Assembly (NCBI RefSeq): GCF_006402735.1
Contig: NZ_CP017174.1
Span: 2,421,001 to 2,485,000 of the forward strand
Direction: 5' to 3'
Length of the DNA stretch: 64,000 nt
Source: Myxococcus xanthus
GTDB lineage: Bacteria; Myxococcota; Myxococcia; Myxococcales; Myxococcaceae
The notes beneath the pieces were generated by a model, which made no database searches, had not been told where the DNA came from, and worked only from the letters and a program-made list of their open reading frames with translations. Made by a program: the position numbers and the translations under genes. Positions 25,024 through 58,310 of this stretch are shown piece by piece (the first letter of the stretch is position 1; the number at the start of each line of letters is the position of its first letter).

Positions 25024-25235
25024 TCCCTCAAGCAGGTGCGCAGGAGGCGAGCGTGGGGCTTGAGGCGGCGGCCAGCACGGAGCCGATGAAGGAGAAGACG
25101 CCGCGAGTGGACTGGGCCGAGTTGCTCAGCAGGACGTTCGACGTCGACGTGTTCGCCTGCATGAGGTGTGGAGGCAGGCGGCGAGTGCTGGCGTACGTGA
25201 AGGGGGCGGAAGGGGTGCGAGCGATTCTGGAGCAC
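25024..25235 (+). mobile_element. IS91-like transposase C-terminal fragment, third copy of a recurrent unit
   Basis: It starts with TCCCTCAAGC at 25024, the same ten bases that start the 490-bp units at 32591 and 35527, and encodes TPRVDWAELLSRTFDVDVFA and CMRCGGRRRVLAYVKG, the C-terminal CxxC region of IS91-like transposases. It ends at about 25222-25235 inside istB, where both partners share GAGCACCTGGGC. The origin end is lost. Confidence 0.68.
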
Positions 25236-25721
25236 CTGGGCCTTGGCCAGGCGCTTGAGCAGGTGCGCATAGGTTCCATCGGCGCGCGCGTGGGCGAGCT
25301 CATCGAAGAGACGTGAGGCCCGGCGGTACACCACCGAGTAGCCATCCCGGCACGCCTTCTGTCCCAGCGCGCATGCGAGGAAGGACTTGCCGACGCCCGT
25401 GGGCCCGGTGAGGAGCACATTCTGCTTGTCCGCCGCCCACTTCGAGGTGGACAGCTCCATCACCTGCGTCTTGGCGAGCCCGCGTGCGTGCCCGTAGTCG
25501 ATGTCCTCCACGGCCGCGGCCTGTCGCAGGCGCGCGGCGCTCAGCCGCGAGGAGAGCTTCTTGTTCTCTCGGTGCATCCACTCCGCGTCGGCCAAGAGGC
25601 CCACCAGGTCGGCTGGGCCAACGTCTCGCTCCCCTGGCCTCGCCAACCAATCGCGCAGGTACGAGGCCATCTCGTGCAGCTTCATCCCGTTGAGTTTCTC
25701 CAGCGTCTGTTCCACCAGCAT
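25236..25721 (-). pseudogene. istB: IS21-family helper ATPase IstB, 3-prime truncated
   Basis: The first ~160 residues are present: MLVEQTLEKLNGMKLHEMAS, HRENKKLSSRLSAARLR, and Walker A GPTGVGKS near residue 110, ending at AHLLKRLAKAQVL, where the IS91 fragment takes over. The Walker B (LDDxG) and arginine-finger part are missing. IstB activates IstA-catalysed integration, so this IS21 copy is probably unable to transpose by itself. Confidence 0.85.
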
Positions 25722-25756
25722 CGGGTTTGTTCCTCATGTCGGTCATGTGGGGGCTT

Positions 25757-25784
25757 GCCCGCGCGCGCTTCTCAGCGCGCGGGC
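25757..25784 (-). repeat. Stem-loop between istA and istB
   Basis: GCCCGCGCGC (25757-25766) and GCGCGCGGGC (25775-25784) form a perfect 10-bp stem in the 177-base gap between istA and istB. IS21 usually has these two genes adjacent or overlapping, so both the gap and the hairpin are atypical; it might reduce istB expression. Confidence 0.4.
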
Positions 25785-25898
25785 CCCTTCCGAGTGCGGG
25801 GGACCGAGGCCTCGCACCAGACGGGAAGTGCCCGCGCACCCAAGGGGCTCCACCGCGGCAGGTGGCGGCGGTGCTCCTCTCTGCGTGCGCGAGGTACG

Positions 25899-27437
25899 TC
25901 AGTGGTAGTAGTGGGGGCCTCGCACGTTCTCATGGGCGGGCAGGGGCGGCTTCTCTTCGCGCTCCTCCCGTGCGTCCTCCAGGTGGTGCTGGAGGATGGC
26001 GGCCACGGACTTGTAGCTGTAGGCCCGGTGGCGCACGGCCCTGGCGCACGCCTTCTCCAGCCGTGCCTCGCCGTACTTGTCCTTCAATCGCATGACACCC
26101 AAGGCCCCGCGGAAGCCCTGCTCCGGATGGGGTTTTCGCTCCATGAGGCCTTGCACCAATGCGGCCGTGGAGGGGCCCGTCTTCTCCGCCCACGTCAGCA
26201 GCCGCTCGGGCGTCCACTCCGCGTGGGCCCGGTGGCTGGTGGGCATGTGCTCCTTCAGCGTGGTGTAGCCCTTGGCGTGCTTGCGCACGTGGCTCGCTAC
26301 CCGACGCCCCCCGAGGAACACCTCGACGCTTCCCTCCGTGTAGCGGGCCTCCACCTGCTTGTGCGCCAGCGAGTACGGCACGCTGTACAGGTGCCCCTCC
26401 ACCTCGACGTGGTAGTCCGGGTGGACGCGCGCCTTCTTCCAGAAGGCCAGCTCGTAGGCATGTACCGGCAAGGCCTTCAGTACGGGCTTCTCGAGTTCCT
26501 CGTACAACTGGCGACGCGAGCGCCCCACATGTCGCATCGGGCGCTCATTCAGCTTCTCAAGCAACGGCCGTATGGCCTCGCGTACCTCGTGCAGGCCACT
26601 GAAGCGGCGGTTGCGCAGGACGGCCAGAATCCACCGCTCCGCCACCAGTACCGCCGCCTCTACCTTCGCCTTGTCACGCGGGCGGCGAGGACGTGCCGGC
26701 AGAATGGCGAAGCCGTAGTGCCGGGCCAGGTTCGCATACGTGGGGTTCTCTTCCGGCTCGTAGCGGTGCGCACGTGTGACTCCTGACTTCAGGTTGTCCG
26801 GCACCACCAACTCCGGGACTCCGCCAAAGAAGGCCATGGCGCGCACGTGGCAGCCCACCCAGGTGGCCAAGCCCTCGGAGTAGACGGGCTCGACGTACGT
26901 GTAGCTGCTGGCCCCCAACGTGGCGACGAAGAGCTTCGCGACCCGCACCTCTCCGCTGTCGCCGTCCACTACTTCGACTCCATCCCCGCTGAAGTCCACG
27001 AAGAGCTTCTCGCCCGCCCGGTGCTCCTGTCTCATGGTGACGCCGAGGACGGACTGCCAGCGCCCATACCGCTCGCAGAACTGGCTGTACTGGTACCCAC
27101 CCGGGTTGGCCGCCAGGTACTCCTCCCACAACAGCAGCTTGGTAACTCCCTTGCGCTTGAGCTCTCGATGCACCTGCGCCCAGTCCGGCTCCGGCCGGTG
27201 CGCAATCGCCTTGCCCTCGTCTGGGAAGAACAGCGCGGTGAGCGCCCCGTCATCGTCCAGTTCCGCCGGCAACGGCCAACCTCCCACTCCTGCTATCCGC
27301 GCTCGCCCCAGGTACTCGCACACCGTCCCATTCCCGATGCCCAGACTCGTGGCGATGTTTCTCGTCGACAGCTTCGACGCGAACCGCAATCGCAACACCT
27401 CTCTCAACTTGCGCACCGCCAGCCTCTCTTGGGCCAT
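25899..27437 (-). CDS. istA: IS21-family transposase IstA
   Basis: A 512-residue transposase. N-terminal helix-turn-helix (LSTRNIATSLGIGNGTVCEY), then an RNase-H-like DDE core with Asp in FVDFSGDGVEV, Asp in VVPDNLKSGV and Glu in DKAKVEAAVLVAERW, and a C-terminal beta-rich domain (HVEVEGHLYSVPYSLAHKQV). All three catalytic residues are present and the reading frame is complete, so the protein may be active. GGAGG 6-9 bases before ATG 27437 fixes the start. The partner IstB is truncated 180 bases downstream. Confidence 0.93.
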   Translation of the reverse strand: MAQERLAVRKLREVLRLRFASKLSTRNIATSLGIGNGTVCEYLGRARIAGVGGWPLPAELDDDGALTALFFPDEGKAIAHRPEPDWAQVHRELKRKGVTKLLLWEEYLAANPGGYQYSQFCERYGRWQSVLGVTMRQEHRAGEKLFVDFSGDGVEVVDGDSGEVRVAKLFVATLGASSYTYVEPVYSEGLATWVGCHVRAMAFFGGVPELVVPDNLKSGVTRAHRYEPEENPTYANLARHYGFAILPARPRRPRDKAKVEAAVLVAERWILAVLRNRRFSGLHEVREAIRPLLEKLNERPMRHVGRSRRQLYEELEKPVLKALPVHAYELAFWKKARVHPDYHVEVEGHLYSVPYSLAHKQVEARYTEGSVEVFLGGRRVASHVRKHAKGYTTLKEHMPTSHRAHAEWTPERLLTWAEKTGPSTAALVQGLMERKPHPEQGFRGALGVMRLKDKYGEARLEKACARAVRHRAYSYKSVAAILQHHLEDAREEREEKPPLPAHENVRGPHYYH

Positions 27438-27513
27438 CTCCACCTCCTCGAAGGAGATGGAGGCGAGACCCTGCTGCCCAGTGCCGCCAACTCTCCGTGT
27501 GTCGCCTCCTCCC

Positions 27514-27604
27514 GTGCTCACCATGCCCGGAACGGGTGCTCACCTTGGGCCGGAACAGGTGCTCACCTTGGACCGGAATCGGTGCTCACCATGGTCCGGT
27601 ACAC
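27514..27604. repeat. IS21 terminal repeats (transposase-binding sites)
   Basis: A 22-23-bp unit beginning GTGCTCACC occurs four times at 27514, 27536, 27559 and 27582, each followed by a CCGGAA-like core. Such multiple end repeats are typical of IS21-type left ends and mark the outer limit of this element at about 27604. Confidence 0.75.
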
Positions 27605-31583: not shown

Positions 31584-31617
31584 CATGACGCAGCGAGCGA
31601 ATTTTGGGCAGGCACAA
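31584..31617. repeat. 34-bp dispersed motif, copy C
   Basis: The block starts CATGACGCAGCGAGCGAA and ends TTTTGGGCAGGCACAA; compare 20120-20153 and 28509-28542. It is 27 bases beyond the stop of the minus-strand gene at 31644. Confidence 0.65.
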
Positions 31618-31643
31618 AGGGTTGACGTTGCGGGGACGGATGT

Positions 31644-32585
31644 TCAGGCGTGGAGCTGCTGCTGGAGCCAGGCGGGGAAGCTGCTGACCTTCGCGGCGAG
31701 CTCGTCACCGCTCAGGTCCCGCTTCTCCTTGAGGAACACGTCGCTCAGGGAGCCCTCGATGGAGACACCGCCGCTGGCGCGCCCCGCGTCCAGCGACAGC
31801 TTCCCGGTGAAGCCGGCCGTCGCCGCGAACTCTCCCTCCACGGTGACGGGCACCTTCCCCAGGTTCTTCGCCTGCGGCCCGAAGTCACCGTTGGCCAGGG
31901 CCTCGCGCGCCTTGGGGTCCGCCAGCGCGGCGGCGACGGCCACCGTCTTCCCCGTGAGCTTCAGCTTGCCGGACACTCCGGTGTCGCCCTTGAGGCTGGC
32001 CTCCGTCTGCGTGCCTCCCGGAGTGGCCAGGCCCACGCCACCCTTGCCGGAGACGCCCACCTCGGCGGAGAGCGTGGAGTCCACGAGGTTGACCTTGAGC
32101 CCGGGGGAGCCGCCCTGCAGCGCCGCCTCCAGGTCCAGCTTCCCGTTGACCTCGAACTTGTTCTGAAAGGCGAGCTTGATGGCCCCCTTGCCCTCGCCTG
32201 TCTTCGTCAAGAAGGTGCCGCTGTCGACGGAGCCCTTGCCCTCGAGCTGTCCGGACTGCTCCACGGTGATGGTGGGCTTCTGGCCGTTCTTGCCGAATTC
32301 GATGTCGACCTTCGTCTCGAGCTGTCCCTTGAGCTCGCCCGCGAGCGCGCGGTTGGGCAGTTCCAGTTTCCCCGCGAGCTTCCCGGCCAGGGTGCCCTTC
32401 ACCGACAATCCCTTCAGGTGGTCTACGAGGAACGTCTGCGCGTCCGTGCCGACGTACGAGTCCAGCTTCCGGTTTGCGTCACCCGCCTTGTCGAAGGAGT
32501 TGCCGAGGCCGTCGGCGCCCACCGCCTTGGCTGCGCCCGCCAGGAAGCCGTAGGCCTTGTCATTGACCTTGGCGCCGGCATCCAC
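31644..32585 (-). CDS. Beta-rich repetitive protein, 5-prime truncated
   Basis: 313 codons remain. The sequence is Gly/Lys/Leu-rich with alternating hydrophobic patterns (SVKGTLAGKLAGKLELPNRA, GQLETKVDIEFGKNGQ, GSVDSGTFLTKTGEGKGAIK, VSGKGGVGLATPGG), suggesting a repetitive beta structure, possibly an exported or toxin-delivery-type protein. The ATG at 32585 is directly at the junction with the IS91-derived unit starting at 32591, so it is an accidental start and the real N-terminus is missing. No family recognised. Confidence 0.5.
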   Translation of the reverse strand: MDAGAKVNDKAYGFLAGAAKAVGADGLGNSFDKAGDANRKLDSYVGTDAQTFLVDHLKGLSVKGTLAGKLAGKLELPNRALAGELKGQLETKVDIEFGKNGQKPTITVEQSGQLEGKGSVDSGTFLTKTGEGKGAIKLAFQNKFEVNGKLDLEAALQGGSPGLKVNLVDSTLSAEVGVSGKGGVGLATPGGTQTEASLKGDTGVSGKLKLTGKTVAVAAALADPKAREALANGDFGPQAKNLGKVPVTVEGEFAATAGFTGKLSLDAGRASGGVSIEGSLSDVFLKEKRDLSGDELAAKVSSFPAWLQQQLHA

Positions 32586-32590
32586 GGCGT

Positions 32591-32877
32591 TCCCTCAAGC
32601 GGGGGCGGAGCCGGGGCTGGAGGAGGAGAGCCCGACCCAGGCTGCGACGTTGGAGTCGACGATGGAGCGCACGCCGCGATTGGATTGGGCGGGACTGGTG
32701 CGCCGGACGTTCGCGCTGGATGTCTTCGCCTGCTCTCGGTGTGGAAGCCGCAGGAGGGTGCTGGAATACCTGACGGCCCCCGGTGGGGGGCGCGCCATTC
32801 TGGAGCACCTGGCATTGCCCTCGCGGCTTGCGAAGCTGGCCCCGGCACAGGGTCCACCCCAGAGCGCGTGGTGTTGA
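32591..32877 (+). pseudogene. IS91-like transposase C-terminal fragment in copy 1
   Basis: Encodes TPRLDWAGLVRRTFALDVFA, CSRCGSRRRVLEYLTAPG and AILEHLALPSR, ending in AQGPPQSAWC with stop at 32877, the typical C-terminal zinc-finger-like end of IS91 transposases. The catalytic region is missing. Confidence 0.68.
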
Positions 32878-33080
32878 GCCCAAGCACCCACAGTGACCTG
32901 GAAGCCCACGCCCCTGCGGCCTGCCGCCTGGATGGGGCGCTTGGGCCGGCATGTGCCCCGAGGGGCGGCACAGCCTCTGCTCCGGCACGGCGCACAGCCC
33001 GCGTGTCACCCTCCAGCGGCCCTTCTTGGCCCCTCTTCACCAGCCCGCCGCCCTCAACAGGGCTCCTATCCGTCCTATAC
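32591..33080 (+). mobile_element. 490-bp IS91-derived unit, copy 1
   Basis: It begins TCCCTCAAGCGGGGGCGG and ends CTCCTATCCGTCCTATAC. It is exactly as long as the unit at 35527-36016 and differs from it by about six substitutions counted by eye. It includes the 3-prime part of an IS91-like transposase gene followed by ~200 bases to the putative origin end. Left flank: a gene missing its N-terminus (31644-32585). Right flank: intergenic DNA before a ferredoxin-like gene. Confidence 0.75.
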
Positions 33081-33152
33081 TTTCGTGGAGGTCGCACCGC
33101 GCTGCTGACCGGTGTGCGCCGGGGAGCTGGCGCCCGCAGGCTGTGCGTCGCA

Positions 33153-33836
33153 TTACCAGGGGTGGGCCTGGCCCGGAAGGCCACGTTCCCACTCCTCCTG
33201 CGAGTACCACTGCACCGCGCCCAGTTCACCTGCGCCCTTCAGCCACTCCGCGATGATCTCGGACACCGGGATATTTCCTGCATGTTGGAGGAGCCACCGG
33301 CCTGGTACGTCGCCGATGGGGTTGGCCGTCACTTCGTGGAACCCATTCTCGGTCCAGGAGAACGAAAAGGAGGCGCTGGAGGCGCTCCTCTTGATGTGAG
33401 TGGTTCGATAGTTGGGTTGTTGGCCCGTCAGCCAAAGACGGAAGCGCTCAAGCACAGCCGCTGACTCCCAAGCGCGAGTATCGAGACGCTGTGCTTCGAC
33501 GGAGACGTGGTTCCGCAAGACAGGGCGGATCCCTGCGGGCAGAGGCGCATCGCACTGGTCGCCTTCCCCCGCTTCAGTGAGTCGGCGCAGGATGACGGGG
33601 TGGGTCCCCCGGTACCGAACGCATCCGAACTCCTGGCAGCGAACGACCATGAGCGCGCGGTCGACCTCTTCGGGGGTGGTGGGCTGTCTCTGGACGTAGC
33701 AGTCGCCGCCAAGTCGTTCGGTCGCGAACGTCTCTGGCGCAATGTGTGTGGGAACGCCGCATGCGGTGCAGCACTGGTCCACGACATAGAAGTCGCCAGG
33801 CACGTTCATGGGATGGGGCTCGTGCTGCTTCGACAT
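33153..33836 (-). CDS. Ferredoxin-like protein of unknown function
   Basis: A 227-residue protein. Residues ~13-60 contain DFYVVDQCCTACGVPTHIAP and CYVQRQP, then CQEFGCVRYRG, suggesting a ferredoxin-type Fe-S domain with an incomplete CxxC pattern at the N-terminus. The C-terminal half (NYRTTHIKRSASSASFSFSW) is not recognised. The start ATG 33836 has AAGGAG 8 bases upstream. Probably a cytosolic redox protein; the family is tentative. It is not obviously in an operon; the next gene upstream is divergent. Confidence 0.62.
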   Translation of the reverse strand: MSKQHEPHPMNVPGDFYVVDQCCTACGVPTHIAPETFATERLGGDCYVQRQPTTPEEVDRALMVVRCQEFGCVRYRGTHPVILRRLTEAGEGDQCDAPLPAGIRPVLRNHVSVEAQRLDTRAWESAAVLERFRLWLTGQQPNYRTTHIKRSASSASFSFSWTENGFHEVTANPIGDVPGRWLLQHAGNIPVSEIIAEWLKGAGELGAVQWYSQEEWERGLPGQAHPW

Positions 33837-33970
33837 GCGGTTCTCCTTGAGCGCGAGCCTACCTGGGCGCCGGGCTCAGGCGCTGTGCGATTCACGGAGA
33901 GACAAGGCTCTCGTTCCTTCACGATTCGTCTACACTCGCCGCGAATCCATCCTTTCACGGAGATGTCACG

Positions 33971-34720
33971 ATGTTCAGCGCCTTCTCGCGCACCCTGCGA
34001 ACGTTCACTGCAACCACCGCGCTCCTGGCCCTCACTGGCTGCGGTGAAGATACGCAGGACCCGCTTCCGGGTCCTCCCGAGGAACTCGCCTGCGATTCAC
34101 AGACCTATGCGGAGGCCGTCCGCAACGCGGCCGAACCCGCGGTGGCGGACATCTCCACGGAGCTGTGGGCCATCAGCCCGTCGAATCCGCGGCTCATCTG
34201 GAACGAGTCCCGGACGGCCGTGCGCATGGCCATCTGGACCACGTTCGCTGGCTACACGCTGGGCGAGAACACGCTCTCCCGTGAGGTCTGGGTCACACCC
34301 GCGCCTCAGCTCCAGACGTTCTGCAAGACGGTACCCGAAGAGAAGCTCGTGGGTCGCCTCAACCAGTACCTGGGATTGCCCCCGGCCACGGAGAACGACA
34401 ACGCTCGCTACGTCGTCGAGCTGTGGGTCCGGCCCGAGAACCTGTTCCGGCCCTGCCCGGACGCGGAGATTGACGACGCCTCGTGCGGTCTTCAGTTCCC
34501 TGCCTCCGCCACCTCCGAGCACAGGAATTGGATCAACGCCTACTACGCCTCCAGCTATGGGTTCTGGCAGAGCACGCACTACCCCTGGACCGGGTTGGGC
34601 TACACGTATGATTGGTGCAACGCCGACACGCGTGTGGGTGCCAGTGAGTACGTGGTTCGCGCTGACTCCATCGTCGAAGTGACGGGCAAGTTCGAGCGCG
34701 CCATCTACTGCGCGCCGTAG
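33971..34720 (+). CDS. Lipoprotein of unknown function
   Basis: A 249-residue protein with signal peptide and lipobox (LRTFTATTALLALTGC). The mature part has several Cys and aromatic-rich segments (WNESRTAVRMAIWTTFAGYT, WINAYYASSYGFWQSTHYPW, YTYDWCNADTRVG) with no known family. GGAGATG 8 bases before ATG 33971 supports the start. Likely outer-membrane anchored. A strong hairpin follows, so it is its own transcription unit, divergent from the ferredoxin-like gene. Confidence 0.75.
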   Translation: MFSAFSRTLRTFTATTALLALTGCGEDTQDPLPGPPEELACDSQTYAEAVRNAAEPAVADISTELWAISPSNPRLIWNESRTAVRMAIWTTFAGYTLGENTLSREVWVTPAPQLQTFCKTVPEEKLVGRLNQYLGLPPATENDNARYVVELWVRPENLFRPCPDAEIDDASCGLQFPASATSEHRNWINAYYASSYGFWQSTHYPWTGLGYTYDWCNADTRVGASEYVVRADSIVEVTGKFERAIYCAP

Positions 34721-34741
34721 CGAACCGCACCGGACCCCGGG

Positions 34742-34775
34742 CACGCGGGCCACCTCGTCAGTGAGGGCCCGCGTG
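34742..34775 (+). terminator. Hairpin terminator after the lipoprotein gene
   Basis: CACGCGGGCC (34742-34751) and GGCCCGCGTG (34766-34775) form a perfect 10-bp stem with a 14-base loop, 22 bases past the stop at 34720. It may also act on the opposite-strand MFS remnant ending at 34833. Confidence 0.6.
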
Positions 34776-34832
34776 TCTGGTCGCGGAAACGGGGCCCGAC
34801 TGGTCTCTTTCTCCGCGCCATGAATCAGGCCC

Positions 34833-35526
34833 TCAACTGGCCAGGTCCTGGGACTCGACTGGTGGACGCTTGGGCTCGCCGAAGGCCATCAGCCGGCGGT
34901 GGAGCGGCGCGAGCAGCCCGAGGAAGCTCACCAGCACGCCGGTGATCTGCAGGAGCCGCTCGATGGAGACCACTTCTGCCAGGGAGCCGAAGAGCGGCAT
35001 GGATAGCGGGATCAGCGCGGTGGAGAGCATGGTCATCACGCTGAAGACTCGGCCCAGGTAAGCCGGCTCCACGCGCTCCTGGAGCATCACCGTGGCGGGC
35101 GTGTTGTAGAGCGGCAGTGCCACGCCGAAGATCCCCATGGCCGCCAGGTACACCCCCAAGTGGGGCACCACGCCGAGGGCCACGGTGCACGCGCCCATGA
35201 TGAGGTTGGACACGACCATTGTCCGCATGCGGCTGTCGAAACCGCCCCACGCCGCGAGCGCTGCGCCCCCCACCATCATGCCCACCGAGAAGACCATCTC
35301 GATGGCCGTCAGCCGCCACACCTCGTCCCCGAAGCTTCGCGCCGTCTGCAAGGGCGTGAGGAATGTGGCCGGGGTGATGAGGACCATGATGAATCCCAGG
35401 TAGCCGAAGAACGGCACCAGGTGCGTGTGGCCGCGGATGTATTGGAATCCGTCGCGGATCTCCGTCAGCTGCGAGGCTCCCTCCTGCGCTGGTTCGCGGG
35501 GGCGTGGTGCCACCCGGACGAAGAGC
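34833..35526 (-). pseudogene. MFS transporter, C-terminal half
   Basis: About 230 residues remain with several hydrophobic segments (VPFFGYLGFIMVLITPATFL, IEMVFSVGMMVGGAALAAWG, TMVVSNLIMGACTVALG, FGVALPLYNTPATVM, LGRVFSVMTMLSTALIPL, ITGVLVSFLGLL), matching the second half of a major-facilitator drug-efflux-type transporter. The N-terminal half is missing; the gene meets the 490-bp IS91-derived unit at 35527. Stop at 34833. Non-functional. Confidence 0.75.
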
Positions 35527-35813
35527 TCCCTCAAGCGGGGGCGGAGCCGGGGCTGGAGGAGGAGAGCCCGACCCAGGCTGCGACGTTGGAGTCGACGATG
35601 GAGCGCACGCCGCGATGGGATTGGGCGGGACTGGTGCGCCGGACGTTCGCGCTGGATGTCTTCGCCTGCTCTCGGTGTGGAGGCCGCAGGAGGGTGCTGG
35701 CATACCTGACGGCCCCCGGTGGGGGGCGCGCCATTCTGGAGCACCTGGCATTGCCCTCGCGGCCTGCGAAGCTGGCCCCGGCACAGGGTCCACCCCAGAG
35801 CGCGTGGTGTTGA
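35527..35813 (+). pseudogene. IS91-like transposase C-terminal fragment in copy 2
   Basis: Encodes TPRWDWAGLVRRTFALDVFA, CSRCGGRRRVLAYLTAPG and ends AQGPPQSAWC at 35813, nearly identical to copy 1. Catalytic region missing. Confidence 0.68.
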
Positions 35814-36016
35814 GCCCAAGCACCCACAGTGACCTGGAAGCCCACGCCCCTGCGGCCTGCCGCCTGGATGGGGCGCTTGGGCCGGCATGTGCCCCGAGGG
35901 GCGACACAGCCTCTGCTCCGGCACGGCGCACAGCCCGCGTGTCACCCTCCAGCGGACCTTCTTGGCCCCTCTTCACCAGCCCGCCGCCCTCAACAGGGCT
36001 CCTATCCGTCCTATAC
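35527..36016 (+). mobile_element. 490-bp IS91-derived unit, copy 2
   Basis: Same boundaries and length as copy 1: starts TCCCTCAAGCGGGGGCGG and ends CTCCTATCCGTCCTATAC. Left flank is the MFS C-terminal half, right flank an esterase N-terminal fragment, both on the minus strand, so the sequence between those genes has been deleted. Recombination between two such units, one in each gene, would produce this. Confidence 0.75.
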
Positions 36017-36181
36017 TTCGCGGTCGGCGATGGCGCCGATGCGGCCGAACTCCTCGGCCTGGAAGAAGCGGCCCTTGCTCGTGGGCAGCAGGAGCACGGG
36101 CTCGCCTGAGTGGCCGAAGACGAGCAGCTCCATGTCGCGGTGCAGCCGTTCGCTGTACCAGCGGTGGTATTCGCGGTTCAT
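36017..36181 (-). pseudogene. Alpha/beta-hydrolase esterase, N-terminal fragment
   Basis: ATG 36181 opens MNREYHRWYSERLHRDMELL and VFGHSGEPVLLLPTSKGRFF, the N-terminal pattern of small esterases of the alpha/beta fold that resemble depolymerase-like proteins. It is cut after 55 codons by the end of the IS91-derived unit. The catalytic Ser, Asp and His are missing. Confidence 0.5.
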
Positions 36182-36240
36182 GGCGTGCAACTTAACCGCA
36201 ACGCGGCAACGGCTGCGACCGGGGTGCAATGGCCTTTCGG

Positions 36241-36276
36241 CAGACAGCCGGGAGTGAACACCCGGGTGGCTGTCTG
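36241..36276 (-). terminator. Hairpin after the HEAT-repeat gene
   Basis: CAGACAGCC (36241-36249) and GGCTGTCTG (36268-36276) form a perfect 9-bp stem, extended by GGG/CCC, about 20 bases beyond the minus-strand stop at 36295. Confidence 0.5.
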
Positions 36277-36294
36277 GCTTTACCGATTCGACGG

Positions 36295-38247
36295 TTACCC
36301 GCCCGGCGGTTCGTTGCAGTTCATACGGTCTCCGCGCCGCGCCAGGTGATGTGTCCACTGTTCTTCGAGTTGGAGGGTGCATCCCAGCCGCACGCCCGCG
36401 TCGAGCAGGGCGGAGAGGTCTTCGTCCGTGCCGAGCCGGGAGAGCGCTTCGATGGCCGCCTCGACCTCGGGGGAGAAGACAGCTGGGAGGCAGGGGCAGC
36501 AAGGGCAGCCGTGGCTGTCGCCCTTGGGGGAGGGCGCGCTGGCGAGCACCTGGAGGAACAGCGCCCGGCTGGCGTTTCCGTCCAGCAGGCCGAGCCAGCG
36601 GAGGGCCTCGGCGCGCAGGAAAGGGGTGGGCGCGTCCAAGGTCAGTTGCTGGAGCGGCGTCAGCCATTCGCGCTGGCCTTGCTGGACCAGTCCCGCGGCG
36701 GCGGGGATGCGGACCTCGGGATGAGGCTCGTGGGCCAGGGAGAGGAGCCGGTCGACCCACGCCGGGCCAGACTCCCCGAGCGCGAGCAGACCTTCGATGG
36801 CCAGGCCCCGAATCCTCGCGTCCGGGTTTCGCAGCGCGGACAGGAGCAGCGGGCGGTCTTCGGGCGTGGGTGTGTTGAGCGCGGCATGCTGGACGACGGT
36901 GCCAATGAGTGGCGCGTTGCCGGGATATCTCTCAGCGGCCCGCGCCCAGCGGACGGCTGCGGGGCGGTCATGGTCCGACAGGTGTTCCAGCAGGTGGCTC
37001 CGAACCTGCGAGGCCACATCGGCGTCACACAGGAGTGGGTACAACACGCGGCGCCGGGCCACGTCCCATTGAAACAGCAGGTCATTGGCCCAGTGGAAGG
37101 CAGGGTGGTGCTTCACGAGGTTGTAGGGCACCTTGCATGCGACGCTCTCCGCGCGCACGACGCGTTCGAGCCGATGCAGCAGTCTCTCTTCGCCCCAGTG
37201 CGCAATCAGGTCTGGCAGGGGGAGCAGCAAGGCTTCCGCGGCACGGTGGTGGAGCGCCGGATGGGTGCGCGTGATTCGAGCCAGTTCGTCGCGAGAGACG
37301 CCCCAGTCCACTCGAATCAAGTCTCTTTCCAGTTCCTCCGCGCTCATGTCCTGACACCACTCGGTGAGCAAGCGCCAGGCTTCGGGCCGCTCCTTCCACG
37401 TGAGGGCGATGCAGAGGTTGAGCTGTTCGTAGGGGTCCACCTCCTCGCGAATGGCGTGACGGTCGGAGTGGTACCAGCGTTCGAACAGCCATTCCGCGAG
37501 CGCGTACGGCTGAGCAACGACGCCTTGCTCGGGGAAGGGGAAGCGAAAGGGATGAAAGGGATGGCGGTCGAGCCGGGCCTTACTCGCGCGTTGCGCCTGT
37601 GTGCGTTCCGGGGACTGCGGGGCGCTGTGGCCGCGCCGCTGCGCGATGAGCAGTCTGCCGCGGGGGCGGGGAGGCAGCTGGAGGAGCGCCGCCTCCAGGT
37701 CTGGACTGAACGTCGCCAGCCTCGCGAAGGAGATGAGGTCGACCAGGGTGAAGCCTGGACCCATGCGTTCGCGATGGTCCTCATCGAGTTGGATGAACTC
37801 CCGTGGGGAGAGTTGGAGTCCGTGCCTCGCGCCCGCGCGTAGTGCGAGGTCCTGGACGTTGAAGTCCTCGTTCGGGTCGAACAGGAGGGCGCGGAAGAGG
37901 GGGAGTTGCTCGACGCCGCCGAAGCTGCCGAGCATCCAGACGATTCGGCGCCGGGTGTCGAAGTGCTCGGGCGGCGTTGCCTTCAGGAGGGAAATCAACT
38001 GCGCGCAGATGTTCTCGCGCGAGGACCACACCAGACTGGGAGACGAGGGCAATTCAGACGCCGAGTTGGGTCCGGCTGGCGACACCGGCTGCGAACACGC
38101 AGGAAGTTCAGGAGAGCCTAGCGACGGTTCTGCCCACGCGCAATCCCGCGGCCTGCGGGGGGTGACGCGCGCGGACGGTTCGACGCCGTGAGTCAGTCTG
38201 CCCGCACTCTCCACGCTCGGACATACCACCCGGGAGGGAGAGCGCAT
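36295..38247 (-). CDS. HEAT-repeat protein
   Basis: About 650 residues with HEAT/PBS-lyase-type helical repeats, e.g. RRRIVWMLGSFGGVEQLPLF, LLLSALRNPDARIRGLAIEG, LAHEPHPEVRIPAAAGLVQQ and LQQLTLDAPTPFLRAEALRW, interrupted by a Cys-rich stretch (GCPCCPCLP). HEAT solenoids bind proteins or nucleic acids; no enzymatic domain is visible. The start is uncertain: ATG 38247 is used, but the first ~60 residues lack the repeat pattern, so a later start is possible. It is divergent from a truncated cas3 HD gene 110 bases away, which may or may not be meaningful. Confidence 0.6.
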   Translation of the reverse strand: MRSPSRVVCPSVESAGRLTHGVEPSARVTPRRPRDCAWAEPSLGSPELPACSQPVSPAGPNSASELPSSPSLVWSSRENICAQLISLLKATPPEHFDTRRRIVWMLGSFGGVEQLPLFRALLFDPNEDFNVQDLALRAGARHGLQLSPREFIQLDEDHRERMGPGFTLVDLISFARLATFSPDLEAALLQLPPRPRGRLLIAQRRGHSAPQSPERTQAQRASKARLDRHPFHPFRFPFPEQGVVAQPYALAEWLFERWYHSDRHAIREEVDPYEQLNLCIALTWKERPEAWRLLTEWCQDMSAEELERDLIRVDWGVSRDELARITRTHPALHHRAAEALLLPLPDLIAHWGEERLLHRLERVVRAESVACKVPYNLVKHHPAFHWANDLLFQWDVARRRVLYPLLCDADVASQVRSHLLEHLSDHDRPAAVRWARAAERYPGNAPLIGTVVQHAALNTPTPEDRPLLLSALRNPDARIRGLAIEGLLALGESGPAWVDRLLSLAHEPHPEVRIPAAAGLVQQGQREWLTPLQQLTLDAPTPFLRAEALRWLGLLDGNASRALFLQVLASAPSPKGDSHGCPCCPCLPAVFSPEVEAAIEALSRLGTDEDLSALLDAGVRLGCTLQLEEQWTHHLARRGDRMNCNEPPGG

Positions 38248-38358
38248 CTGGAGCGTTCGTAGGACAAGGCGCCTTGTGCCTGTCACTCGACGGCACCCAG
38301 AATCCAACCACACGCGTCTGTTCGAGAGAGCGGGCTCGTGCGCGGTGGGGGGAGTGCG

Positions 38359-38875
38359 ATGACCAAGGATCCGGATCGTCCTGGGGCGCCATCACGGCCA
38401 CGCGTGGTCACGAATGAGCCATTGGCTCACGTGACGGAAGACTGTCGACCTCACCTGTTGCGCGAGCACCTGGAAGCCGTAGGGCAATGGGCCGCTCGAC
38501 TGGCGCCTCGTGAGGACTTGCGCGCGCCTGCCCTGGCCACGGGACGGTGGCATGACCTGGGCAAGTACACCCGGGACTTCCAGATACGCATCCGCAAGGA
38601 AAACGGCTTCGAGGCGCACCTGGAGAAGGAAGGGGCGCTGGAGCGGGACCACTCGACGGCGGGAGCGCTCTGGGCGTTGAGCCGGGATCGTCGGCTGCTC
38701 CCGCTGGCGCTGGCGATCACCGGGCATCACGCGGGCCTGCCCGACTTGCCGAAGTTCAAGGAGCGGGTGGGGCGCGATGAGAAGCAGGCGCTGCTCGCGG
38801 ACGCGCGGGCCCGCTGCGACAGCCCTTCTCTTCTGGATGAATCGCTGGGCTTCTCTCCGGAGACGCTCGTGAAAC
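38359..38875 (+). pseudogene. cas3: CRISPR-associated Cas3 HD-nuclease domain, truncated
   Basis: 172 codons from ATG 38359 (GGGGGAG 5-6 bases before) encode a Cas3-type HD domain: LLREHLEAVGQWAARL, RWHDLGKYTRDFQIRI (HD motif), DHSTAGALWALS and LAITGHHAGLPD (GHHAG), the metal-binding pattern of Cas3 HD domains. The frame is cut at 38876 by an IS91-like end, so the helicase part and any downstream cas genes are gone. No CRISPR array was seen in the window. Confidence 0.75.
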
Positions 38876-39055
38876 GTATAGGCGGGATAGAGGCCCTGTT
38901 GAGGGTGAGGGCTGGAGCGGAGGGGCCGAGGAGGGCCGCTGACGGGGCCTCCCGAGCGATGCTCCCGGCCGGAGGACAGACCGATTGAACCCCCTTGGGG
39001 TCCACGCCTGCCCAGGCCTCGCTCCCATCAGGTGCGTGGCAGGGGCCGCCGGCCT
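38876..39055 (-). mobile_element. Solo IS91-like end, 180 bp
   Basis: Starts GTATAGGCGGGATAGAGGCC and is the same length (180 bp) and nearly the same sequence as 39710-39889. Flanked on the outside by AAAC (38872-38875) in the cas3 remnant. It carries no transposase; it looks like an orphan origin end left by one-ended transposition or recombination. Confidence 0.65.
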
Positions 39056-39161: not shown

Positions 39162-39776
39162 ATGGGACTCTTGACCTTCAGCATCAACGTCACCCTGGAC
39201 GGCTGCGTCGACCACCAGGAGGGAATCGCCGACGACGAGACACACGCCTTCTTCACCCGCCTCATGGACGAGGGCGGGGCGATGCTGTGGGGCCGCGTCA
39301 CCTACGAGATGATGGAGAGCTACTGGCCGGCGGTCGCCCGCGGCGACGCGGAGGCGCCGCCGGCGATGCGCGAGTGGGCGGTCAAGCTGGAGGCCAAGCC
39401 GAAGTACGTGGTGTCGTCGATGCGAAAGGACTTCCCGTGGACCAACAGCCACCACATCGCCGGCGACCTGCGCACGGGCGTGCAGAAGCTCAAGGACGCG
39501 ACCCCGGCTGGCGTGCTCCTCGGTAGCGGCACGCTCGCGACCGAGCTGGACCGGCTGGATCTGATCGACGAGTACAAGTTCCTCGTCCACCCCAGGATCG
39601 CCGGCCACGGCCCGACCCTGTACCAGAGTGGGCTGCCCAGCACGCGGCGGCTCGAACTGGTCTCGGCGAAGCCGCTCCGCAGCGGCGTGGTCGCCATGCA
39701 CTACCGAACGTATAGGCGGGATAGAGGCGCTGTTGAGGGTGAGGGCTGGAGCGGAGGGGCCGAGGAGGGCCGCTGA
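39162..39776 (+). CDS. RibD C-terminal/dihydrofolate-reductase-like protein with IS-derived tail
   Basis: The main part (~183 residues) fits the RibD_C family: MGLLTFSINVTLDGCVDHQE at the N-terminus, LWGRVTYEMMESYWP, KPKYVVSSMRKDFPWTN, LLGSGTLATELDRLDLIDEY and FLVHPRIAGHGPTLYQS. Such proteins are NADPH-dependent reductases, often of unknown substrate. The family normally ends shortly after MHYR; here the last native codons run into the IS91-like end at 39710 and add ~22 foreign residues before a stop at 39776. The core fold is complete, so it may still be active. Confidence 0.85.
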   Translation: MGLLTFSINVTLDGCVDHQEGIADDETHAFFTRLMDEGGAMLWGRVTYEMMESYWPAVARGDAEAPPAMREWAVKLEAKPKYVVSSMRKDFPWTNSHHIAGDLRTGVQKLKDATPAGVLLGSGTLATELDRLDLIDEYKFLVHPRIAGHGPTLYQSGLPSTRRLELVSAKPLRSGVVAMHYRTYRRDRGAVEGEGWSGGAEEGR

Positions 39777-40700
39777 CGGGGCCTCCCGAGCGATGCTCCC
39801 GGCCGGTGGACAGACCGATTGAACTCCCTTGGGGTCCACTCCTGCCCAGGCCGCGCTCCCATCAGGTGCGTGGCAGGGGCCGCCGGCCTGGTTGCAGCGC
39901 GTCCTCAGGCCCTTGCGCGGGCAGGGCCCCTCTTTTCTCCAGCAGGCGCAGCACCCGGTGACGCACCACCCTCAGCAGCCGCTCCACATCAACTTGCGTG
40001 GGCGGCGGCAACGCCTCGAAGCGCACGCGCCCTCCCCCGGCACGAAGACGCCTTCCGGCACCAGCGCATGGTAGTGAGGCGTTACTTGCGAGGCCGAGCC
40101 GAAAAATTGGAGAAAAGAGACGGCCCCGGTCTGTCCACCGCGCACGCCCTGCCGCCGTGCCCTGCGACGTTGCAGGGCAAACACCGCTCGCAGGAAAAGG
40201 GTGAGGACGTCCGAGAGCAGCCCCTTCTCCTTCAGCAGTACCCATCGCATCCGATGCGGAAAGGACAGCGTCCACTGCCGGCAGGGCACGCGCGGCAGCA
40301 CCTGCTCCACCAGATGCACCGCCGTTACCTGCGCCCGCTTCGCGTTGCAGGAGGGGCACACCCCTCGCCCCTTGCACGAGAAGGCGACGAGCAGTTCGTC
40401 CTTACAACTCTCGCAGCGCACCCGCGCGAAGCCGTGCCCCAGCACGCCGCACTCCAGGTACCTGGCGAAGTCCCGCTCCACGTACCGGGGCAGGCCGCGC
40501 CCCACGTCGCTCGCCTCCGCCAGCAGCGTGGCAAGGTTCTCCCTCACCGCCTCGTACAGCACCGTCCCCTCCGGCTGCCTCCGCCGGTACGCCCACCCCC
40601 GCTCCTCCACCTGCCCCTCCCCATCCCCCACCTCGCCAGGGCACTCACTACCGTCAGCCTCCCACGGGCTTCTCGTGAGCCCTGCGAGACTGGGGAACTC
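39710..40700 (-). mobile_element. Internally deleted IS91-like element
   Basis: From the origin-like end at 39710 (outside flank GAAC, 39706-39709) through 180 bases matching the solo end, then a minus-strand transposase N-terminal region up to about 40650, with its upstream part near 40700. The middle and catalytic C-terminal part of the transposase is missing. The right limit is approximate. Confidence 0.6.
39890..40649 (-). pseudogene. IS91-like transposase with internal deletion and frameshift
   Basis: The frame from about 40649 gives the zinc-binding region [20 protein letters not shown] and [16 protein letters not shown], continuing to HYHALVPEGVFVPGEG near 40045; after a frameshift it goes on with GRVRFEALPPPTQVDVERLL and RHRVLRLLEKRGALPAQG to about 39890. 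It resembles the fragment at 21766-22378. The Y2 catalytic and C-terminal segments are missing. Confidence 0.7.
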
Positions 40701-40888
40701 GGGCCGCTCGCGTCCGTGAGCGGGTTGCCCCTGTGGGGCCGCATGTGCCCCCAGTGTGCCCCTCATGCGGGGATGAGAACGGGACAAGACGGGGGAAGAC
40801 GGGATAGGGCGGTACAACGAACCGACGTGAGATCAAGGCGATAGTGGGTAACAGCGCGTCCTGCCTGGGGTTTCCTATCGCCTTGCCC

Positions 40889-40913
40889 GTGGGTTCGATT
40901 CCCGCCGCCTCCA
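40889..40913 (+). other. 3-prime fragment of a tmRNA or Ala-type tRNA gene (possible attachment site)
   Basis: GTGGG-TTCGATT-CCCGC forms a T-arm, followed by CGCCTCC and A. U70, C71, C72 and A73 in tRNA numbering match the alanine/tmRNA acceptor rule (G3:U70). No matching 5-prime acceptor strand (GGGGGCG or GGAGGCG) lies at tRNA distance upstream, so only the 3-prime end is here, as at att sites of integrative elements. The bases after A (CTG) do not encode CCA. Confidence 0.45.
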
Positions 40914-49565: not shown

Positions 49566-50081
49566 CGCGGCGTAGAAGGCCGAGGCCAGCTCATGGCCCT
49601 TCGCCTCCGACACGGGGAAGCGGGGCCGAGCCTCGCGCACGTGAGCCCTCGCGCGGCTGGCGAGCTGGCGGCAGGCGGCCGGGTCCCGGTCGATGGCCTT
49701 CGCCACCTCCTCGAAGTCCATGCCGAACACGTCGTGCAGGAGGAAGGCGGCTCGCTCCAGAGGGGACAGTCGCTCCAGGGCCATCATCAGGGTCAGCGTC
49801 AAGTCATCACTCTCCACCGCATCGACGATGGGCTCCGGAAGCCAGGTGCCCACGTATTCCTCGCGGCGTACGCGGGCGGACTTCAGGACATCCAGACACA
49901 ACCGCGTCACCGTGCGGACAAGCACGGCCTCGGCGTCGCGCACGGCGGTGCGGTCGGTCTGGTGCCAGCGCAAGTACGCCTCCTGCACCACGTCTTCTGC
50001 CTCCGCGACGATGCCCAGCATCCGGTAGGCGATGCGGAGCAAGCGGGGGCGCAGTGGGTCGAAGGCGTCAGCGGGATTCAC
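49215..50081 (-). CDS. ECF41-type RNA polymerase sigma factor with SnoaL-like C-terminal domain
   Basis: A 288-residue ECF sigma factor. Sigma2 region (AYRMLGIVAEAEDVVQEAYL), sigma4 region (LERLSPLERAAFLLHDVFGM, DPAACRQLASRARAHV), then a ~100-residue SnoaL_2-like extension containing the ECF41 signatures SDGGGKVKAALNP (DGGGK) and TRNPDKL (NPDKL) that control activity. ECF41 genes are next to a carboxymuconolactone decarboxylase, oxidoreductase or epimerase gene; here the decarboxylase gene ends one base before this start. Regulated probably by the promoter at 50600-50627. Physiological signal unknown. Confidence 0.93.
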   Translation of the reverse strand: MNPADAFDPLRPRLLRIAYRMLGIVAEAEDVVQEAYLRWHQTDRTAVRDAEAVLVRTVTRLCLDVLKSARVRREEYVGTWLPEPIVDAVESDDLTLTLMMALERLSPLERAAFLLHDVFGMDFEEVAKAIDRDPAACRQLASRARAHVREARPRFPVSEAKGHELASAFYAASRSGDMGALQALLAQDVVVYSDGGGKVKAALNPIYGQEKTLRLFEGLLRIRGVNYSQLVHEGFIDGLPAFVTLEKDGTLQTTALGIEDGRVVAIYVTRNPDKLRSVRELVRDQLPS

Positions 50082-50082
50082 G

Positions 50083-50547
50083 TCAGGCGGCCTCGGTGCG
50101 GGGAGCGGTGACGGGGTGAATGGAGCGGAACCCCACGGCGATGCGGTTCCAGGTGTTGATCATCCCGATGAGCAGGGTGAGGTGCACGATTTCCTGCTCC
50201 GAGAAGTGCGGCTTGAGGGCAGCGTAGTCCTCATCGGGCGCGTGCGTCTGGGAGACGTGCGTCAGGGCCTCCGTCCAGGCCAGGGCCGCTCGCTCGCGCT
50301 CGGTGTACAGAGGCGACTCGCGCCAAGCGTCCAACAGGTAGATGCGCTCCTCGGTCTCCCCATGCGCGCGGGCGTCCCGGGTGTGCATGTGGATGCAGAA
50401 CGCGCAGCCGTTGATCTGCGAGGCGCGGATCTTCACGAACTCCAGGATGCTCTTCTCCAGGCCCAACTCCAGCAGCTTCTGGCCATAATCGAGTGTCAGC
50501 TTCATCGCATCGGGGGCGGCGGCGTACGGGTTCAGCCGGGACTTCAT
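50083..50547 (-). CDS. Carboxymuconolactone decarboxylase family protein
   Basis: A 154-residue AhpD-like protein: MKSRLNPYAAAPDAMKLTLD, then KIRASQINGCAFCIHMHTRD with the redox CxxC pair (C48, C51) and His, and EALTHVSQTHAPDEDYAALK; small all-helical thiol reductase/peroxidase-like enzymes. AGGAG 8 bases before ATG 50547. It is the first gene of the ECF41 operon, one base from the sigma-factor start, and is the expected ECF41 target gene. Cytosolic; the oxidant or substrate is unknown. Confidence 0.9.
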   Translation of the reverse strand: MKSRLNPYAAAPDAMKLTLDYGQKLLELGLEKSILEFVKIRASQINGCAFCIHMHTRDARAHGETEERIYLLDAWRESPLYTERERAALAWTEALTHVSQTHAPDEDYAALKPHFSEQEIVHLTLLIGMINTWNRIAVGFRSIHPVTAPRTEAA

Positions 50548-50599
50548 GGGCGGCTCCTGAGTGTCGGGCAGGGCGAAAGTGCCTGCGTTCAACTTCAGG

Positions 50600-50627
50600 A
50601 CGACGCAGCCGGGGCCGCATGTGACAT
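50600..50627 (-). promoter_or_regulatory. ECF41-type promoter upstream of the decarboxylase/sigma operon
   Basis: On the minus strand TGTCACA (50627-50621) is followed after 17 bases by CGTC (50603-50600), matching the ECF41 promoter consensus (TGTCACA, spacer ~16, CGTC) and located ~55 bases before the start at 50547. It suggests autoregulation. An overlapping CGTC at 14 bases is also present. Confidence 0.6.
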
Positions 50628-50675
50628 GGCCTTTTCCGGCCGATTTATTCGCCCTACCGTTCCCGGGGCGAGGAA

Positions 50676-51386
50676 TCAGTCGAGCCCCGTCTTGCCCACC
50701 GCCCAGTAGGCCTTCACCTTCGGCGTGGCGCGGTCGCCGTCGCCGCGCAAGCGGGCGCGCAGGGCCTGGATCGACTGCGCCCGGCCCGTCATCACCAGCG
50801 CCGCCCCGGGCTTCGCGCCCATCGCCTCTCGCAGCCGTTCATGGAGGCGGGCCAGGTGGGCGTCCCCAGGCTCGCGCGCCACGGACTGGCCTTCGAAGCC
50901 CATCTCACGAAGCACGGGGGCGCACGCGTCAGGCGCCGTCACCTCGAAGAGCGGCGTGACGTCCCGCCTCGCCGCCGTTCGGAATGCGTACGCCACCGCG
51001 AAGGACGTCTCGTCGCCGAACAGCACCACCGGCGCGTCTCCGGCCTCCAGGGACAGCGAGCGCCGGGGGCCGAAGAACTGGACGGTGTCGCCCACCTTCA
51101 CGTCGCGGCCCCAGCTCGCACCCGGGCTGTCGCCGTGCAGGTACACGAGGAAGGAGGTGGCACCCCGTTCCTCGTCCCAGGACTGCGGCGTGTACGTACG
51201 CATGCCCAGCCCTGGCAGGAAGACCTGCACCTTGTCGCCAGGGGTCCAGCCCTGTCCCTTCAACGCGGGCCCCTCGCAGTCAATCTGCCGGAAGACGCGC
51301 GAGCGCTCGTGGACCTGCGTCACACGGCTGTCGGTGAAGAGGAAACGCCCCAGGACACTTCCCAGCAAGGCCTTCGCGGATGCCAT
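50676..51386 (-). CDS. Siderophore-interacting protein (FAD-binding)
   Basis: A 236-residue protein with the SIP/ViuB pattern: GPALKGQGWTPGDKVQVFLP and MRTYTPQSWDEERG (FAD-binding RxYT), a GDTVQFFGPRRSLSLEAGDA segment and VVLFGDETSFAVAYAFRTAA before the NAD(P)H-binding C-terminal part. Such proteins reduce ferric siderophores to release iron in the cytoplasm. GGGAGG 6-9 bases before ATG 51386. No siderophore transport genes are next to it, so its substrate is open. Confidence 0.85.
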   Translation of the reverse strand: MASAKALLGSVLGRFLFTDSRVTQVHERSRVFRQIDCEGPALKGQGWTPGDKVQVFLPGLGMRTYTPQSWDEERGATSFLVYLHGDSPGASWGRDVKVGDTVQFFGPRRSLSLEAGDAPVVLFGDETSFAVAYAFRTAARRDVTPLFEVTAPDACAPVLREMGFEGQSVAREPGDAHLARLHERLREAMGAKPGAALVMTGRAQSIQALRARLRGDGDRATPKVKAYWAVGKTGLD

Positions 51387-51471
51387 TGGCACCTCCCTCC
51401 CGGCTTCCTTATGCGCCCCTCCTGTCCGGGGCTCGTGAAGTTGCGTGAAGCCGTCCCCGTGGTGCGAAAGC

Positions 51472-53187
51472 TCACTCCGGCTGGAGGAAGCGTCCGTCCA
51501 CCAGGTGGTCGATGACCTCTCGCGCGGAATGCGGGTCGAGCCGGGCCTTCGCGCCGAGCTTTGACACCGCGCTGGAGACGGTCGTGGGGTGCTCGAAAGC
51601 AGCCAGGGCGGCCAGGAGGATGGCGCCGTCCTCGCCCTGCGTGAGCGTGGGGTCGGAGAACCGCTTCGGGCTGACAGAAGGAGCGCAGCTCATCGTGATG
51701 CCATCCACGGAGCGGAGGACCGTCACCGCCTCACCCGCGAGCTTCGCGGGGGCGCGATGGCTGCCCAGCCACTCCCCCAGGGTAAAGCGCTGGGTCCAGG
51801 GGGCGGTGTTGCGCAGCCGCGTCCTGCCCTGGATGGCGACGCTCTTGCGCGTGTCGCGGTGCTTCCATGCCAGCGCGTCCACCCGGTCGGAGGTGTGCTG
51901 GACCGCTGCTTCCAGCGCCGCGTCGCGGAAGCGAATCATCGGCACGGACACGTCACCGGGCTCGCGGCGCTCGAAGTAGCCGAGGAACTCCGCGAACGTC
52001 TTCGCCTCTGTCACCATGTCGAAGCGCGCGGGGTGCTGCGTCACCAGCGCCCCGGGCTGCGCTTCGAGCCGCTGGTAGCCCACCACGCAGTCCAGGCCGA
52101 TGATGCGCTCCACGAGCCGCAGCTCCTCCGCCAGGGTGGCCTTGCTCGCGAAAGGCAGGCCTCCGATGCCGGAGATTTCGATGTCCAGGTTGGGGTACTT
52201 GCGGCAGGCGTCGATGACTTCCAGCAGCTCGTGGTCCTTCGCGCAGGGCTTGAGCAGGCCCCGGCCCATCTGCTCCAGCCGCTGCTGTTCGGAGAAGCAA
52301 CCGATATCGATGACCATGTAGACGCGCTGGAACGTCGCGGCCAGCGCCGCCACCAGCTCCACCCGGGGTACGCCCCACAGGAAGTACGTGCAGCAATGGC
52401 TGGAGAGGTCCACGCCCGCCCAACTGCTGCTCAGGAACCCGGCGGTGCTGCCCGCGAAGTCGTAGCGCATCTGCCACGTCCGGGCGGCGATCTCCTGGTG
52501 GTCGCGGCGCACGTTCTCCTCGGCGCGCAGGAAGGGCTTCGCGCGCCCGAAGTCCGCTTTCTGGTTGCCTCGCGCCCCGCCGCAATACAGGCAGTTCTCA
52601 CCGCACCCCTTGCCGGGAGCGACCCAGCCGGAGAACGAGTGCTGGTCCATCTGGCTGAGGAAGATGTCGTTGAAGTGCGAGTAATAGATGTCGTCCGTGT
52701 TCGTGGAGCGCTGCACGTACTCCAGCGGCATCCGGCGCGGCCGGCCGTCCGGACTCCTCGTCACGACGTTGGGCGGCGCCTCCTCGCCGTTGCACAGCGC
52801 CAGCAGTGGCACCTCTCCGTCGCCCAGCATGATGTGGTCGATGCTGTCGTAGCCGCTCAGCTCCTTCCACCAGTACGACGCGGAGTTGCCTCCCACGACG
52901 ATGCGGATGGAGGGGTCGAGCCGCCGCACCGTCCTCGCGATGAGTAGCGCGCGGTCCACGTGGTGGAACCACTTGAGGCTGATGCCCACGAGCTTCGGGC
53001 GTACGCGGCGCAGGAGGCCCTCGAAGGTGCGTGTCACCTCGGCTTCGGTCTCATCCCCGTCGTACAGCCGCACGAAGGCCTCGATGCCGCCGCGCCGCAG
53101 GTAGCCCGCCAGGTACAGGATGCCGCACGTGGCCTCCCCCGTTCCGGCACCGACGAGGAGGACTGGAGAGAGGACACGACCGCCCAT
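51472..53187 (-). CDS. B12-binding domain radical SAM protein
   Basis: A 571-residue enzyme. Residues ~1-150 form a B12-binding-like Rossmann domain (VLLVGAGTGEATCGILYLAG, PKLVGISLKWFHHVDRALLI, IRIVVGGNSASYWWKELSGY, IMLGDGE). The radical SAM cluster motif CxxxCxxC is C195, C199, C202 (GCGENCLYCGG). A C-terminal segment (residues ~500-571, EDGAILLAALAAFEHPTTVS and AREVIDHLVDGRFLQP) resembles a winged-helix or PqqD-like domain. Family members catalyse methylations or RiPP maturations. No precursor peptide was recognised beside it. Monocistronic by spacing. Confidence 0.83.
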   Translation of the reverse strand: MGGRVLSPVLLVGAGTGEATCGILYLAGYLRRGGIEAFVRLYDGDETEAEVTRTFEGLLRRVRPKLVGISLKWFHHVDRALLIARTVRRLDPSIRIVVGGNSASYWWKELSGYDSIDHIMLGDGEVPLLALCNGEEAPPNVVTRSPDGRPRRMPLEYVQRSTNTDDIYYSHFNDIFLSQMDQHSFSGWVAPGKGCGENCLYCGGARGNQKADFGRAKPFLRAEENVRRDHQEIAARTWQMRYDFAGSTAGFLSSSWAGVDLSSHCCTYFLWGVPRVELVAALAATFQRVYMVIDIGCFSEQQRLEQMGRGLLKPCAKDHELLEVIDACRKYPNLDIEISGIGGLPFASKATLAEELRLVERIIGLDCVVGYQRLEAQPGALVTQHPARFDMVTEAKTFAEFLGYFERREPGDVSVPMIRFRDAALEAAVQHTSDRVDALAWKHRDTRKSVAIQGRTRLRNTAPWTQRFTLGEWLGSHRAPAKLAGEAVTVLRSVDGITMSCAPSVSPKRFSDPTLTQGEDGAILLAALAAFEHPTTVSSAVSKLGAKARLDPHSAREVIDHLVDGRFLQPE

Positions 53188-58163: not shown

Positions 58164-58310
58164 CAGGTCTGCCTCTCTGTGAGAGTTGTCAGACACGGGG
58201 CCTGATGCCGCCGTGAATCCAGGTGTACATCACGACTGAGAAGGGCCGGGCACGCTCATTCCCAGACCCGCAGTGTCGAGGCGCGGGGTGGCGGTCTAGG
58301 ATGCCGCGCC

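What the first reader, a model, noticed from the sequence alone, without database searches (positions are those of the whole stretch)
32591..36016. Two 490-bp IS91-derived units with identical boundaries, and a third sharing the left edge
The segments 32591-33080 and 35527-36016 are the same length to the base and differ by about six substitutions; both start TCCCTCAAGC and end CCTATAC. A third copy at 25024 starts with the same ten bases. All three sit beside different truncated genes (histidine kinase, beta-repeat protein, MFS transporter). IS91 remnants normally end at random places; a fixed left boundary in three loci suggests a defined small mobile unit (a transposase 3-prime end plus origin end) moved by a full IS91 elsewhere. 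The left edge contains CAAG, an IS91 target/terminating tetranucleotide.
Basis: partly seen in the sequence, partly recalled or inferred. Interest (0 to 1): 0.75.

Follow-up and report, generated by a model that had tools for sequence, protein, structure and literature searches.

The report
Fixed-end transposon fragment joining gene pieces
A piece of a bacterial jumping gene about 490 letters long starts at the same letter in dozens of places in soil myxobacteria and often sits at the seam between unrelated gene pieces, which suggests that it has real ends of its own and moves neighbouring DNA with it.

Summary
Of 114 copies aligned from Myxococcus, Corallococcus, Archangium and relatives, 30 run on upstream as transposase; of the other 84, 55 stop within 5 nt of this edge, the best other 11-nt window holding 8. 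Host bases before the edge are RY in 54 of 58 (background 25%). None of 27 units showed a contiguous empty site (few candidates scored per genome), and where both flanks could be traced they come from different loci. Three pairs of units share the right flank but not the left; one case shares the left but not the right. My reading, inferred: a non-autonomous rolling-circle element whose 5' end lies inside the transposase gene and which often overruns its 3' end, carrying gene fragments; IS91-like, but of opposite polarity. Closest precedent: IS801 one-ended transposition. New variant of a known kind.

The parts
32591..33082 (+). unit 1 (W1), 492 nt: transposase 3' end plus right terminus
35527..36018 (+). 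unit 2 (W2), 492 nt, 6 differences from unit 1 in the first 490
25024..25243 (+). third copy, left part only, then IS21 istB-like frame
32591..32600 (+). fixed left end TCCCTCAAGC of unit 1; host bases before it CGT
35527..35536 (+). fixed left end TCCCTCAAGC of unit 2; host bases before it AGC
33074..33082 (+). right end CCTATACTT of unit 1
36010..36018 (+). right end CCTATACTT of unit 2
31616..32590 (+). fragment left of unit 1; relative at G002:C24 10209-11183, 90.6%
33083..35526 (+). fragment F1 between units 1 and 2; follows one native locus (G000 6645494-6644307) with about 1.2 kb extra; MFS gene broken at unit 2
36019..38873 (+). fragment F2 right of unit 2; one stretch with G007 9230011-9232815, 90.8%; esterase-like gene broken at unit 2 (my recognition)
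38874..39052 (-). right-end piece of another IS91-type element, opposite strand, bounding F2
39708..40904 (-). larger IS91-type remnant with the N-terminal transposase part (Zn_Tnp_IS91, start of Y2_Tnp) and a right end

Best explanation
The unit is a non-autonomous derivative of myxobacterial IS91-family (HUH, Y2) elements. Shown: two recurrent ends, TCCCYCAAG at the left inside the transposase frame and CCTAT[AG]C[GT][TC] at the right; host bases before the left end are nearly always RY; unit plus right-hand DNA recurs with the same left edge beside different left flanks. Inferred: a transposase acting in trans nicks the top strand after MGY and takes the strand that begins TCCC as its 5' end; transfer runs rightwards and should stop at the CKY-terminated right end, but often overruns to a later RY site, so that downstream gene fragments are carried along; the product joins at an MGY target, and existing MGY|TCCC junctions would be natural targets, giving runs of unit-fragment-unit in one orientation.
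For: Fixed edge, 55 of 84. RY before it in 54 of 58, p 6e-28 against trinucleotide background. For the 7 exact-edge units of the 27 tested whose left native was found, the native has the same bases and then runs on differently, so these bases are host. At the right end the last three bases are CGT, CTT, CGC or CTC in 79 of 83 and differ from the native bases there: like motif outside the left end and inside the right end, which under the HUH rule that bases 5' of the cut are read (recalled) makes the top strand the mobile one. Three pairs share the right flank with unlike left flanks: W1/G013, L185/G032, G011/C. sicarius, the last over 4.29 kb at 96.2% between genera. Unit plus F1 lies in different surroundings in G000 and G024.
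Against: No empty site in 27 units or for the G050 cassette; plain insertions should exist. L190 (G029) and a 29-nt remnant in G031 share the left flank and differ on the right. The G000b/G024 pair is discounted: G024 also has the left flank with part of the unit. The ends of shared right flanks do not all sit at RY (G029/G032 end at GGGG). At right junctions RY is exact in 8 of 12 natives and needs a 1-nt shift in 4. No conserved 3' hairpin. Full-length left ends were not defined. Subfamilies with GG before TCCC in the parent do not show the RY rule at that donor site.
Confidence: 0.45

Rival explanations
1. Ordinary IS91/IS801-type one-ended transposition: origin at the right end, bottom strand moved leftwards, with TCCCTCAAG as a favoured premature stop inside the transposase gene.
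For: IS801 gives 229, 360 and 679-nt right-end fragments with set left ends, 26.3% of its insertions (PMC3189936, passages). CCCTCAA is at the left edge and in 66 of 83 right ends. One case shares the left flank.
Against: The host motif lies outside the left end, not outside the right end. Three pairs share the right flank. No empty sites. F1 in G013/G024 and the C. sicarius fragment end without a unit on their right.
Confidence: 0.3
2. The edge was made once or a few times, and homologous recombination between units, with DNA from other strains, has since shuffled the flanks.
For: Left and right flanks come from different loci wherever both were traced. Units 1 and 2 are alike enough to recombine. 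Several fragments are closer to other species than to the own genome (F2).
Against: The edge occurs in subfamilies with different linker lengths and about 70% identity; shuffling does not explain RY in 54 of 58 flanks.
Confidence: 0.15
3. Deletions that start at the fixed left edge and end at an MGY site, so that the right flank stays and the left flank changes.
For: Same right flank with different left flanks. IS801 makes deletions by one-ended transposition (PMC6354349, passages).
Against: The flanking genes are extra copies: relatives stay elsewhere in the same genome (W2: 6.64 and 8.76 Mb in G000). Unit plus F1 lies in different surroundings in G000 and G024.
Confidence: 0.06

Closest known systems
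IS801 miniature fragments made by one-ended transposition (IS91 family, Pseudomonas syringae; PMC3189936, passages read)
   Same: Short 3' pieces of an IS91-family element with a constant right end and a few set internal left ends; transposase can act in trans; adjacent DNA sometimes taken along
   Different: IS801 takes DNA from upstream of the element and uses GAAC/CAAG-type tetramers; here one edge serves many subfamilies and genera, the host motif is MGY at the left, and the carried DNA appears to be on the right
Helitrons (PMC4778049, PMC5876387, passages read)
   Same: 5' end beginning TC, top strand moved, overrun of the 3' end carries flanking gene fragments
   Different: No helicase domain in the parents, no conserved 3' hairpin, not inserted between A and T, bacterial
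ISCR elements (PMC13393415, passages read)
   Same: IS91 relatives thought to carry neighbouring genes by rolling circle
   Different: They carry a transposase gene; the unit carries only its C-terminal part

Membership tests
IS91 family (full-length parents) | Y2_Tnp and Zn_Tnp_IS91 domains | tested here: met
   L110 and L112 carry both, above cut-off
IS91 family (the unit) | own transposase | tested here: not met
   its 94-aa frame matches no Pfam family
IS91 family (the unit) | target tetramer GAAC or CAAG beside the right (origin) end | tested here: not met
   right flanks vary; the conserved host motif is MGY at the left
IS91 family (the unit) | no target duplication | not testable with these tools
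   no empty site found
Helitron | 5' end TC | tested here: met
   TCCC in nearly all edge copies
Helitron | hairpin near the 3' end | tested here: not met
   RNAalifold predicts no pair on 12 right ends, though many single ends could pair GCCCT with AGGGC
Helitron | insertion between A and T | tested here: not met
   left flank ends in C or T in 57 of 58
Helitron | RepHel with helicase domain | tested here: not met
   parents show only Zn_Tnp_IS91 and Y2_Tnp
MITE | terminal inverted repeats | tested here: not met
   by eye: TCCCTCAAGC against the reverse complement of the right end, AAGTATAGGA
IS801-type one-ended fragment | constant right end with set internal left end | tested here: met

The most novel reading that the evidence does not exclude
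Myxobacteria hold a bacterial counterpart of Helitron gene capture: an HUH system of opposite polarity to IS91 whose 5' end lies inside the transposase gene and which cuts and joins DNA at RY sites, building runs of a 0.5-kb unit with gene fragments of many loci and species strung between them.
Probability: 0.27. Interest if true: 0.8.

Novelty: new variant of a known kind. Interest (0 to 1): 0.58.

Why it matters
If right, it offers a bacterial system in which strand polarity, choice of ends and gene-fragment capture in rolling-circle transposition can be tested directly, a question left open between IS91 and Helitrons. It would also explain patches of broken, foreign-looking gene pieces in myxobacterial genomes.

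Tried and rejected
Empty sites: joined flanks of 15 units in 27 genomes and of 12 units in 96 genomes gave no contiguous match; only 11 and 3 candidates per genome were scored, so a weak empty site could be missed. One of the 12 (L207) starts 4 nt inside the edge, and the left flank typed for L105 held a 12-nt stub of a second left end. L105 gave a weak match across the join (72%, G045) but is an NRPS-like piece beside a YhhN-like piece by eye. The cassette of C. sicarius gave none either.

I looked for the missing half of the target beyond the fragment in several natives and did not find it. The left end of full-length parents stayed undefined: homology runs into sequence that I recognise as like a tRNA or tmRNA 3' end, but ARAGORN found no gene in the 6 loci scanned. 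A conserved right-end hairpin was dropped. Plasmid relatives of the C-terminal part are all under 60% identity; of three opened, the Comamonas copy breaks at another place.

Print: searches listed IS801, ISCR and Helitron papers; I saw no listing about such units in myxobacteria. Only passages of five papers were read.

Full report
Observation. A third copy starts with the same ten bases at 25024 and matches a unit for 220 nt. The window lies in a 9.3-Mb single-contig genome.

What the unit is. The left part is the last 94 codons of an IS91-type transposase (PQAG...DWAGLVRRTFALDVFAC..CGGRRRVL), the rest non-coding up to a terminus shared with other elements. Two full-length relatives carry Zn_Tnp_IS91 and Y2_Tnp; the unit's own frame matches no Pfam family.

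The left edge. C-terminal copies in all loci at hand (own genome, genus genomes, and 60 loci of the genome-contig scan) were aligned to 11 references that read through the edge. Of 114 copies, 30 run on more than 40 nt upstream, 55 end within 5 nt of the edge, 4 lie 6-40 nt upstream and 25 downstream. The best other 11-nt window holds 8, mostly a subfamily that has the motif edge but was misaligned; with those, 62 rows were taken as edge copies, of which 4 were later dropped. The set is not a random sample: most loci were fetched because they match the unit, and some copies may be related by descent. Parents read through the edge in frame (...RPFLLPQ). The edge is found with several linker lengths, so it was reached more than once.

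Bases at the edge. In 58 distinct flanks the base before TCCC is C or T in 57, the last two are RY in 54 (background 0.25), and [CA]GY in 36 (background 0.09). For 7 exact-edge units of the 27 tested (W1, W2, G018a, G018b, G026d, G013a, L055) a left native was found; it carries the same last three bases in its best match and then differs from the unit.

The right end. Natives of right flanks show that TT (or GT, GC) after TATAC or TATGC is not host. The last three bases of 83 right ends are CGT 26, CTT 24, CGC 22, CTC 7, other 4. In 12 right junctions with a native, the native bases before the flank are RY exactly in 8 and with a shift of one base in 4 (test).

Flanks. None of 27 units gave a contiguous empty site, with the limit on scored candidates told above. 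For W2 the two flanks have relatives far apart in the single-contig genomes G000 (6.64 and 8.76 Mb), G007 and G010, for L190 in G028 (9.80 and 3.77 Mb), for G026d and L183 on different contigs of drafts; for L105 the two sides encode different proteins by eye. For the other units one or both natives were not found. F1 follows one native locus with about 1.2 kb extra; F2 is one stretch with a G007 locus; in G018 two fragments between units follow G011 and, with a gap, G010 loci.

Direction. One search (84 right ends, 38 left edges with coding sequence) gave four pairs with a shared right flank and no shared left flank other than transposase. On checking, one of the four (G000b/G024) is not good: G024 holds the left flank with part of the unit elsewhere and only 110 nt of the unit beside the right flank. 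In the other three both members have the edge and unlike left flanks. G011 and C. sicarius share 4.29 kb at 96.2% from the edge to ...GATGGCG; the fragment runs on to the next unit in G011 and stops in C. sicarius. F1 stops after CACGCCGCGA in G013 and G024, followed by part of another gene whose natives mostly have RY before that place. Against: in G031 a 29-nt remnant made of both ends has the same left flank as L190 of G029 (98.4% over 1.4 kb) and another right flank; and the shared flank of G029/G032 ends at GGGG.

Arrays. In the seven loci shown, picked because they hold several copies, all hits have one orientation (3 to 6 hits each, some of them two pieces of one unit). Among 24 typed hits in G000, neighbours within 12 kb are 9 alike and 5 opposite.

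Reading. A motif outside the left end and a like one inside the right end mean, under the HUH rule (recalled), that the top strand moves from TCCC to CKY. Overrun to a later RY explains the fragments on the right. That plain insertions are missing might be because insertions in working genes are lost; this is a guess. G000 has only partial Y2 domains (4 matches), so the units may be at rest here.

Precedent. IS801 yields set right-end fragments and deletions by one-ended transposition (PMC3189936, PMC6354349, passages read). New here are one edge used across subfamilies and genera, the apparent polarity, and the fragment arrays.

Noticed in passing
window 40830-40910; L112, L131, L034, L120: Left of several longer IS91 remnants lies sequence that I recognise as like a tRNA or tmRNA 3' end; ARAGORN found no gene.
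   Followed up: partly
L253 (G031:C406), 29 nt at the edge: A 29-nt remnant that fuses the left end TCCCTCGAGC to the right end TCCTATCCGTCCTATGCGT, between a shared left flank and a new right flank.
   Followed up: partly
L105, left end: Two left ends 12 nt apart in tandem (TCCCCCAAGCGT|TCCCCCAAGCG), as if a unit had joined after CGT inside another unit.
   Followed up: no
window 49804-63896: This part runs in reverse order along G024:C4; G024 holds about 4 kb with part of a unit and F1 where the window has about 0.4 kb.
   Followed up: partly
window 25250-27524: IS21-like istA and istB frames that cut off the third copy (my recognition).
   Followed up: no
L355 (Comamonas testosteroni pI2) 1-2363: A DUF4158 (Tn3-type) gene runs into the 3' part of an IS91 transposase, at another break than in myxobacteria.
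   Followed up: partly
L121 (G001:C89): Transposase frame broken in its C-terminal part and followed by a serine-recombinase-like frame (my recognition).
   Followed up: no
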